Assembly (NCBI RefSeq): GCF_000003855.2
Contig: NW_003101677.1
Location: forward strand, 1,471,506 to 1,535,505
Origin: Blastomyces gilchristii SLH14081
Taxonomy: Eukaryota; Ascomycota; Eurotiomycetes; Onygenales; Ajellomycetaceae
DNA: 64,000 bases
Direction: 5' to 3'
Within the stretch, counting starts at the first letter, position 1; each line of letters opens with the position of its first letter. The notes below the pieces were generated by a model. It ran no database searches. It was not told the DNA's origin and saw nothing but the letters and a program-made list of their open reading frames with translations. The position numbers and the translations under genes were made by a program. Of this stretch, positions 52,492-54,559 are shown piece by piece.

Positions 52492-53038
52492 ATGCAGATG
52501 CTGATGTTTGTTTTTATTTATATAGAATCTTCACACATTGACAGATTCACATTCACTGATAATAGTGAACTCAATATTAAATCATTGATTGAGAACTTGA
52601 AGAACATGATAATGAAGAAATTGTCTGTATTATATGTGGCTGAGTCTTCTATATCTCTCTCTACTTCTTCTGCTGCTGTCTCTCAATCTTCTATATCTGT
52701 CTCTGTGTCTGATTCTTCTGCTCTCACTATCTCTGTTCCTGTGACTCTCACTTCTGCTACTTCTACTCTCTCTGGTTTTATCATCTCTACTTTTGTTATC
52801 AGCTCTTCTCATTTCAAGAAGATGTTGTATAGGCTTAATAAATCATATTTATCAGTATATACACTTCTGCTCTTCTTATTAACTTCTAGAATAATTTATT
52901 GTATACAGACTGTGTACAATATAATAATCTGAAGCTCAGTCACAGATATTAATTATTATATTCATTTTAAATATTTATAATAAGATAATTATTCATTTAT
53001 ATCAGAGAATCATCTCTCTCTTTAACAGTATTAAGATT

Positions 53039-53092
53039 GTAAGTCTTTTTCTTTTCATCTTTTCTTTCTGATACTGATTTTTCTATTCTTAG
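53039..53092 (+). other. Intron 1 of the family C antisense gene (C2), 54 nt
   Basis: Consensus GTAAGT donor at 53039, polypyrimidine stretch, ACTGAT at 53073-53078 and acceptor TTAG ending at 53092. The split codon reads TAA now, as expected if an original C before GT was converted at CpG. Confidence 0.68.
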
Positions 53093-53494
53093 AAGAAATC
53101 ATTATAAGTTTTACTGTGTGTAAAGTTATAACATTCACAGACACTAAGAAACTTTTCATAACTATTAAATTCAATATTATAGATATATCTGCTCTGACAA
53201 ATATCTTCAGAATGATTGATCTGTATCAGCCTATTCTTTGATATTTGTTGTCTGACTTCATAATATAGATGAAGAATATTCATGTTTTCAGAAACAGAAA
53301 CACAGATGTTGTACTCTTTTATATTCACAGATGTGAGACTTGTATATCTTGTCTGAAATGTTATTGTGAGAATGAGCTATTTATACACTGTGTTCTGCTT
53401 TCTGTATTTCTCTGTGTTTCTCTCTCTCTTTCTGAGAAGCCTCATGTGTGTTGTAATTATGTGTATAACTCTAAGATCAGCAGGTGTTCATTCA

Positions 53495-53549
53495 GTAACT
53501 ATTCTCATCTCTAATTTTATAATTTTTATATACTAACAATGATTCTTAG
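53495..53549 (+). other. Intron 2 of the family C antisense gene (C2), 55 nt
   Basis: GTAACT donor, perfect ACTAAC branch site (53532-53537) 12-13 nt before the TTAG acceptor. Length modulo 3 fits the frame shift between the flanking open segments (53269-53514 and 53651-53971). Confidence 0.76.
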
Positions 53550-54559
53550 TTGCTTCAGTATCAGAGACTATTCTAATCAAAGATGATAATACTGCTGAGA
53601 TTATTCTCTCTCACTCTCAAGCTTCTTTCATTACTTTCTCTTCCTTCTCTGTGAGAAAGGTTATACACACATCAGATTATAAATGTTCAGTATCAGATAA
53701 CTTCTACTATCATTCATTCAGTTCTGCATCTTCTTCTTTCATTTCTTCTGTCTTCATTCTTTCTGTTCTGACTCCTGGTTCTGCAGGTCCTGCACTCTTC
53801 TTCAATTTCTCTATGCATACACATATGCATTTCTATATTGACATTTCAGTCAATCTTGTGATAAATAACATTAATGTTGTACATAGAGCAGTAGAGGAAT
53901 CAGAGACATGCACAGTGTTATTACAAGAGCAGCTTGTAGCTCTTGAATCTCTTACAGACCTTGAGTTTTGAGATTTTCTTTGTTTTTTAGCATTTTTCAG
54001 ATGATGTGGTGTTGAAAATAGATTCAATATATAATATATGAAAATAAATGAAGTGTATATGATAATATTTATCTTTTACAGCTGACTCTTATAATTGATA
54101 ATTAATTCATTATTTCTTTTCTTTTCTTATACTTTTTCTTTATCTGTTAGTTACTACTCTTACATGATCTCTATATAATACAGTATTCAGTGACTAGATT
54201 CAGCAGCTTTCATCTTTTATAATTCTGTCTCACATATTATACTGTCTTTCTTCACTCACTTAGACTACTACAGTGAACAGCTTATCAAAACTAACCTCAT
54301 CTGATCTCTGAGTGTTCTCAGAGGTCAAGATGACTTGATTTCATATATCTATAAATGTTTCAGATAGTTCATCCTCTGTAATCTCTGTGATTGAACTAAT
54401 GTAAACAGTTAAATTCAACTCTGAATTTCTTTTTCTTCTGTGATCTGACTTATATATAAGTCTGCTACTTTGAGACTGCTCTTTACTATATTATACTCAC
54501 TATCTGCAGTGTGTTATCATATAATTAGCTATAGTCTCATTACTTATTAAAGTGTGATA

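What the first reader, a model, noticed from the sequence alone, without database searches (positions are those of the whole stretch)
52492..53971. Family C retrotransposon carries a spliced antisense gene
Between integrase and the 3' LTR, on the strand opposite to gag-pol, C2 holds three exons joined by a 54-nt intron (GTAAGT...ACTGAT...TTAG) and a 55-nt intron (GTAACT...ACTAAC...TTAG). The 55-nt length is exactly what joins two open segments lying in different frames. C1 (39964-41443) has the same exons and introns, with exon lengths 547, 402 and 422 nt in both. An intron in antisense orientation survives retrotransposition because it is not recognised in the sense genomic RNA. The 457-codon product has a cysteine-rich centre and no family I can name. 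Extra genes between pol and the 3' LTR are known in some Gypsy elements (as I recall, brtn in Botrytis), so relatedness should be tested.
Basis: partly seen in the sequence, partly recalled or inferred. Interest (0 to 1): 0.9.

Follow-up and report, generated by a model that had tools for sequence, protein, structure and literature searches.

The report
Host gene captured backwards by retrotransposon
A mobile element that is abundant in a fungal genome carries, on the strand opposite to its own genes, a relative of a fungal gene with introns at matching places; this fits the idea that a backwards gene can keep its introns through RNA-based copying, and it suggests where such extra genes come from.

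Summary
Largely right. In 66 copies indels keep frame in exons, not in introns or UTR; exon 3 is 402 nt in all 66. The genome is Blastomyces gilchristii SLH14081; a less damaged copy is annotated BDBG_17024. The 'unknown' centre is Pfam DUF3716. A host DUF3716 gene in normal-GC DNA (C1:269691-270774) shares cysteine pattern, C-terminal motif and two phase-1 introns at matching places. Best reading: an intron-containing host gene captured antisense and kept by the element, probably as a nuclear regulator (function inferred). Antisense genes at this place are known (plant Grande, RIRE2, Retand; brtn of Botrytis Boty), so the class is not new; a traced host origin with retained introns was not found in my searches. 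Transcription is untested.

The parts
51783..60083 (-). C2 element, Ty3/Gypsy type, 8.3 kb, gag-pol on minus strand
   Evidence: 174-nt terminal direct repeats, 84% identical
51783..51956 (-). 3' LTR of C2
59910..60083 (-). 5' LTR of C2
52262..52322 (+). antisense gene exon 1 (20 codons + 1 nt)
   Evidence: maps to the first 20 residues of BDBG_17024; length unchanged in 64 of 66 copies
   Evidence: GTAAGT in 61 of 66 copies, AG at its end in 65 of 66; length not frame-constrained
52526..53038 (+). exon 2 (Pro/Ser/Ala-rich part and what follows)
   Evidence: 41 of 44 net length changes are multiples of 3; the annotated proteins read residues through this stretch, where C2 has stops
   Evidence: phase 1
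53093..53494 (+). exon 3, 402 nt in 66 of 66 copies; carries DUF3716
53314..53490 (+). DUF3716 (PF12511), cysteine spacing x2-x9-x19-x2-x8
   Evidence: position transferred from the Pfam match of the L042 copy (also L077); cysteine spacing read from L077. C2's own translation was not scanned; the L032 copy gave no Pfam match
   Evidence: phase 1; AG at the 3' end in 65 of 66 copies
53550..53971 (+). exon 4: acidic/Ser-Pro linker, conserved C-terminal motif, stop codon
   Evidence: 24 of 27 net length changes are multiples of 3
53828..53968 (+). C-terminal motif shared with the host DUF3716 protein
   Evidence: blastp E 4e-6 against a two-sequence set, L077 copy as query
56942..56980 (-). reverse transcriptase active-site motif (YLNDILVFS)
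   Evidence: RVT_1 1.1e-12 on the surrounding read-through piece, X at stops; position
56429..56497 (-). RNase H region
   Evidence: RT_RNaseH_2 9.6e-15; position
55796..55852 (-). integrase zinc-binding (H2C2) region
   Evidence: Integrase_H2C2 2.3e-7; position
54803..54928 (-). integrase C-terminal region
   Evidence: sequence reading; inside a 97-residue stretch 77% identical in the L077 copy
39964..41673 (-). C1 copy of the antisense gene: exons 41613-41673, 40897-41409, 40441-40842, 39964-40385
41979..42152 (+). C1 3' LTR
   Evidence: 86% identical to the C2 5' LTR

Best explanation
An abundant Ty3/Gypsy family of Blastomyces gilchristii carries a four-exon antisense gene between integrase and the 3' LTR. 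It descends from a host DUF3716 gene captured with its introns. It entered the element in the orientation opposite to the genomic RNA, so the spliceosome could not remove its introns during retrotransposition. The element kept it under coding constraint while it multiplied. Shown by sequence: anatomy, linkage, frame constraint, DUF3716 membership, similarity to a host gene in two regions, and two introns at matching places. Inferred: the direction of transfer, transcription from a promoter in or just inside the 3' LTR, splicing of the antisense pre-mRNA, and a function as a nuclear zinc-binding, nucleic-acid-binding regulator of the element (helix-mediated dimer), perhaps mimicking or competing with the host protein.
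For: Frame-keeping indels and exon/intron contrast over 66 copies; splice sites kept apart from C-to-T/G-to-A type damage. Linkage, gene first: pol 3' part in the same orientation in 62 of 66; LTR in 26 of 66, that is 25 of the 26 copies with long enough flank plus one of the 40 with short flank. Linkage, pol first: of 40 scored pol places, 24 were tested and 24 have exon 3: 16 by coordinates in the lists (one of them 0.4 kb off the expected place), 8 of 8 by fetching; 16 were not tested. DUF3716 8.5e-8 over positions 2-58 of 59 in the L077 copy's exon-3 frame, but only positions 2-31 in the public models, which splice out the second half. Host gene: PF12511 56.6 bits in a 48.5% GC stretch; close homologues, presumed orthologues, in Blastomyces silverae, B. 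parvus, B. percursus, Histoplasma, Emmonsia, Emergomyces. Six-cysteine pattern x2-x9-x15-x2-x8 in the host, x2-x9-x19-x2-x8 in the element; C-terminal match 4e-6 and DUF3716-region match 1e-6, both against a two-sequence set; profile comparison E 2.2e-4. Host introns after PPPP|R and after the DUF3716 domain, both phase 1; element introns 2 and 3 sit at corresponding places, both phase 1.
Against: No RNA data were available, so splicing and expression are inferred. Nearly all copies are broken: exon 3 lacks stops in 2 of the 150 places scored. Profile comparison gave a probability of only 45%. Both structure predictions were of low confidence (mean pLDDT 48.1 and 43.5). The transversion test shows no codon bias when singletons count, and the integrase positive control was uninformative (positions 1/2/3: 9/7/7 at 2 or more copies, 1/1/3 at 3 or more). 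The L032 copy gave no Pfam match. Intron matching is to within a few residues on a weak alignment, and the host intron ends are my model from one genome plus homologous proteins. Element intron 1 also lies 61 nt after the ATG, as host intron 1 does, so which element intron matches host intron 1 is open. Other DUF3716 genes exist in the genome and one of them could be the true donor.
Confidence: 0.75

Rival explanations
1. The direction is reversed: the antisense gene is an old retroelement gene, and the host DUF3716 gene of Ajellomycetaceae is a domesticated descendant.
For: Homology itself has no direction; DUF3716 also sits beside a PIF1-helicase (Helitron-like) reading frame, so the domain is found near other mobile DNA too.
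Against: The host gene has close homologues in four genera, whereas the searches with the element's protein listed only Blastomyces dermatitidis and B. gilchristii (29 of 29 and 43 of 43 listed; candidates were capped or word-limited). Introns are ordinary in a host gene and need a special orientation in a retroelement.
Confidence: 0.15
2. A host gene was captured antisense but gives no useful protein; the element benefits only from antisense RNA or from extra length.
For: Antisense transcription alone can regulate elements (review passages, PMC7264820). No expression data here.
Against: Frame-keeping indels, an invariant 402-nt exon and exon/intron contrast point to selection on the protein while the family multiplied.
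Confidence: 0.12
3. The reading frame is a composition artefact: the purine-rich sense strand gives a Ser/Leu/Phe-rich antisense frame by chance.
Against: Annotated proteins of 450 and 463 aa, Pfam match above its cut-off, frame-keeping indels.
Confidence: 0.02

Closest known systems
brtn, antisense gene of Boty-like Gypsy elements (Botrytis cinerea; Zhao et al. 2011, not held, title seen only in reference lists)
   Same: Antisense extra gene between pol and 3' LTR of a fungal Gypsy element, per PMC7264820 (passages)
   Different: No splicing or host origin is stated in the passages I saw; sequence not available here, so homology untested
Plant antisense additional ORFs: Grande gene23, RIRE2, Retand TRP28
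   Same: Same place and orientation; conserved in most copies of a family; proposed regulators, Grande protein nuclear (PMC7264820, PMC11963269, passages)
   Different: The review passages say function and origin of most are unknown and report no clear similarity to other proteins; here a host homologue and matching introns are found; different domain (DUF3716)
HTLV-1 HBZ (recalled; an antisense promoter in the HTLV 3' LTR is mentioned in PMC7264820)
   Same: Antisense, spliced, expressed from the 3' side, nuclear regulator (recalled)
   Different: No sequence comparison was made; HBZ is a bZIP-type protein (recalled)
Host DUF3716 protein of Ajellomycetaceae (P0062-P0068 and L079)
   Same: Cysteine pattern, C-terminal motif, two phase-1 introns
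   Different: Host gene lacks the element's long Pro-rich exon 2 and one of its three introns; it lies in normal-GC DNA

Membership tests
Ty3/Gypsy LTR retrotransposon | RT-RNase H-integrase order between LTRs | tested here: met
   RVT_1, RT_RNaseH_2 and Integrase_H2C2 above cut-off in read-through pieces with X at stops; LTRs; order by coordinates. No chromodomain match; rve matched only weakly in L078 (0.015, below cut-off)
Antisense additional ORF of LTR retrotransposons | between pol and 3' LTR, opposite to gag-pol | tested here: met
Antisense additional ORF of LTR retrotransposons | present in most copies of the family | tested here: met
   24 of 24 tested, out of 40 pol-selected places; 16 of 40 untested
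Antisense additional ORF of LTR retrotransposons | transcribed from its own promoter | not testable with these tools
   no RNA data
brtn homologue | protein sequence similarity to BRTN | not testable with these tools
   brtn sequence not held
Pfam PF12511 DUF3716 | score above the curated cut-off (22 bits) | tested here: met
   L077 copy 32.5 bits, L042 copy 28.5, P0002 30.3, P0001 23.0; L032 copy no match; P0004 20.8 (below); P0006 none
Zn(II)2Cys6 (GAL4-type) cluster | C-x2-C-x6-C-x5-12-C-x2-C-x6-8-C (recalled) and a Pfam match to that family | tested here: not met
   six cysteines but x9 and x15-19 spacings; no such family among the Pfam matches
Captured host gene | host homologue with shared intron positions | tested here: met
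   matching to within a few residues, same phase; alignment weak there

The most novel reading that the evidence does not exclude
The element carries a host DNA-binding regulator as a backwards, intron-containing gene, so the protein can be made only from integrated DNA in the nucleus and never from the packaged genomic RNA. The captured protein mimics or competes with the host DUF3716 protein to keep the element expressed or to guide integration. Retained introns would then be a general mark of antisense capture and a way to trace where antisense accessory genes come from.
Probability: 0.2. Interest if true: 0.85.

Novelty: new variant of a known kind. Interest (0 to 1): 0.62.

Why it matters
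The review passages I read say the origin and function of most antisense accessory genes are unknown (PMC7264820). Here one can be traced to a host gene family, with introns as the tell-tale, which makes the origin question testable. It also gives a mobile-element source to many 'hypothetical proteins' annotated in Blastomyces (21 of 29 records and 28 of 43 are labelled partial) and corrects the splice of the two longest ones.

Tried and rejected
Led nowhere: structure predictions (no fold search was run on them); solved-structure search of the host profile, 8 matches at E up to 10, best 0.053; profile search A1, only Blastomyces proteins listed; integrase codon-position control, too few columns; target-site duplication, not clear in C2 and not resolved in the L077/L078 copy. 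DUF3716 loci L080-L084 were read only in outline.

Literature: 0 papers hold 'DUF3716'; 1 holds 'PF12511', in passing; the main texts of two Blastomyces genome papers do not contain a word starting 'antisense' (PMC4595289, PMC11540331; passages seen). In some searches I noticed no intron-containing antisense gene of host origin in a fungal element; of those papers I saw only listings, plus passages of PMC7264820, PMC11963269, PMC5408684, PMC8365987, PMC4227169 and, from a reference, PMC3248453.

Full report
What is in the window. C2 is a Ty3/Gypsy element at 51783-60083 with 174-nt LTRs; its pol reads on the minus strand, with RT, RNase H and integrase in that order. Between the integrase end (about 54.6-54.8 kb) and the 3' LTR lies a gene on the plus strand. 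C1 holds an inverted copy of the same region (arms 38184-42154 and 51781-55751, 87% complementary).

Which genome. The homologues listed by the two searches with the gene product are all annotated in Blastomyces dermatitidis or B. gilchristii (29 of 29, 43 of 43; candidate lists were limited). BDBG_17024 (P0001) lies on a contig of 3,179,325 bases, the length of contig C7 here, and maps onto C7 (L077): 20 of 20 residues in exon 1, 99% of 141 in exon 4, and the middle the same in the printed alignment apart from the splice points. The genome is therefore B. gilchristii SLH14081 (inference). Published work describes its Gypsy expansion and RNA-aided annotation (PMC4595289, passages) and says few LTR elements are intact (PMC11540331, passage).

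The gene model. The annotated proteins show an extra first exon, MAP..QF(I/V)S, which maps to 52262-52322 in C2, followed by an intron that ends at 52525. With this model the exon sums are in frame in L077, C2 and C1. C2 has 8 internal stops and C1 has 6; L077 has one, just before the second splice, which the public model avoids by another donor.

Is it coding? I aligned 66 copies: C1, C2, all 38 loci L009-L046, L077, and 25 of the 30 loci L047-L076. Dropped were four that are the same places as L033, L038, L042 and L046, and L058, which is the same place as L077. Net length changes are multiples of three in 41 of 44 (exon 2), 24 of 27 (exon 4) and 0 of 2 (exon 1); exon 3 does not change. In 5'UTR and introns they are 16 of 64, 14 of 65, 1 of 26 and 4 of 22. 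Copies share ancestry, so I also counted distinct events: 25 of 38 in exons (21 of 30, 4 of 7, 0 of 1, none in exon 3) against 55 of 174 in 5'UTR, introns and 3' flank (P 1e-4); events are about five times rarer per base in exons. Transversions are a weaker witness: position 3 holds 19 of 35 columns (at least 2 copies) and 15 of 25 (at least 3), but 56 of 159 when singletons count.

Is it part of the element? In 62 of 66 copies the 3' part of pol follows in the same orientation. An LTR was found in 26 of 66: 25 of the 26 copies with long flank and 1 of the 40 with short flank, which mostly stop before it. Starting from pol, the best 40 scored places were taken (795 first-look candidates). Sixteen have exon 3 in the lists, fifteen at the expected distance and one 0.4 kb off; 8 of 8 fetched ones have it; 16 were not tested. 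Exon 3 matched in 150 of 150 scored places out of 793 first-look candidates, so there are at least 150 copies of it.

Where it comes from. A DUF3716 scan of the genome gives 38 places over the cut-off, 150 of 189 candidates having been scored. The best, C1:270009-270194, is in normal-GC DNA (L079, 48.5% GC, 366 CpG in 7 kb) and belongs to a gene with close homologues in Histoplasma, Emmonsia, Emergomyces and other Blastomyces. Its protein shares with the element's product the stretch before DUF3716 (weakly), the six cysteines at x2-x9-(15 or 19)-x2-x8 spacing, and a C-terminal motif; in the predicted model of a Histoplasma homologue that motif is a helix and the only part of fair confidence. 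My host model has three exons (L079 3192-3252, 3301-3720, 3845-4275) and two phase-1 introns. One is in an Arg codon after a proline run, 5-6 residues before a G-x-x-V-x-E-V segment; the other is shortly after DUF3716. The element's introns 2 and 3 sit at corresponding places, both phase 1. The element's intron 1 is also 61 nt after its ATG, as host intron 1 is, so that match could be argued either way. I read this as capture of a host gene with introns, in antisense. Capture in sense should have exposed them to splicing from the genomic RNA (established knowledge of retroelement replication).

How it works, most likely. Steps shown: position, orientation, constraint, homology. Steps inferred: an antisense promoter in or near the 3' LTR, splicing, export and translation of a roughly 465-residue protein, zinc binding, a dimer through the helix, and nuclear action on the element's transcription or integration. 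Support for the nuclear part is by analogy only: the plant Grande protein is nuclear and Retand TRP28 is predicted to bind DNA (PMC7264820, PMC11963269, passages).

What is known. [quoted passage not shown] brtn is also mentioned in PMC8365987 and PMC4227169, passages). The class is therefore not new. New here, within the searches named, are a traced host origin, introns at matching places and the DUF3716 identity. I mark it as a new variant of a known kind.

Limits. No RNA data, no brtn sequence, no other fungal genome could be searched as DNA, structure models are poor, and the host-element comparison is statistically modest outside DUF3716 and the C-terminus.

Noticed in passing
52492-53970 measured in 40 copies: At columns where both letters are held by at least 3 copies, the T (or A on the other strand) fraction is CpG 0.97, CpC 0.82, CpA 0.37, CpT 0.24, unlike the CpA preference of classic RIP (recalled).
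   Followed up: partly
L077 from 6045 and L078 to 6780; also C2: The ends of the element keep CpGs (32 in the first 400 nt and 14 in the last 236 nt of the L077/L078 copy; 2 and 7 at the ends of C2) while most 400-nt bins of pol have none or few.
   Followed up: no
L077 6524-8236 against 8300-9100: In the BDBG_17024 copy the antisense gene is less mutated than neighbouring pol (CpG 30.9 against 12.5 per kb; GC 0.49 against 0.38). Over 65 copies the medians are 0.6 and 0.0 per kb.
   Followed up: partly
L082 2158-2604 (+) and 4316-4603 (-); a similar DUF3716 piece in L084: DUF3716 lies near a PIF1-helicase frame (1.8e-14), possibly a Helitron that also carries a DUF3716 gene; L082 also ends in a piece 76% like the LTR of C2.
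   Followed up: partly
L080 4251-4520 (-), L081 4351-4863 (-): Further DUF3716 reading frames; L081 is followed by a different, coiled-coil-like tail (reading; Pfam on L081).
   Followed up: no
BDBG_17024, BDCG_06430: The public gene models lack the second half of DUF3716.
   Followed up: yes
L078 8019-9998 (-): Long reading frames with Copia-like sequence beside the L077/L078 element (my reading; not scanned).
   Followed up: no
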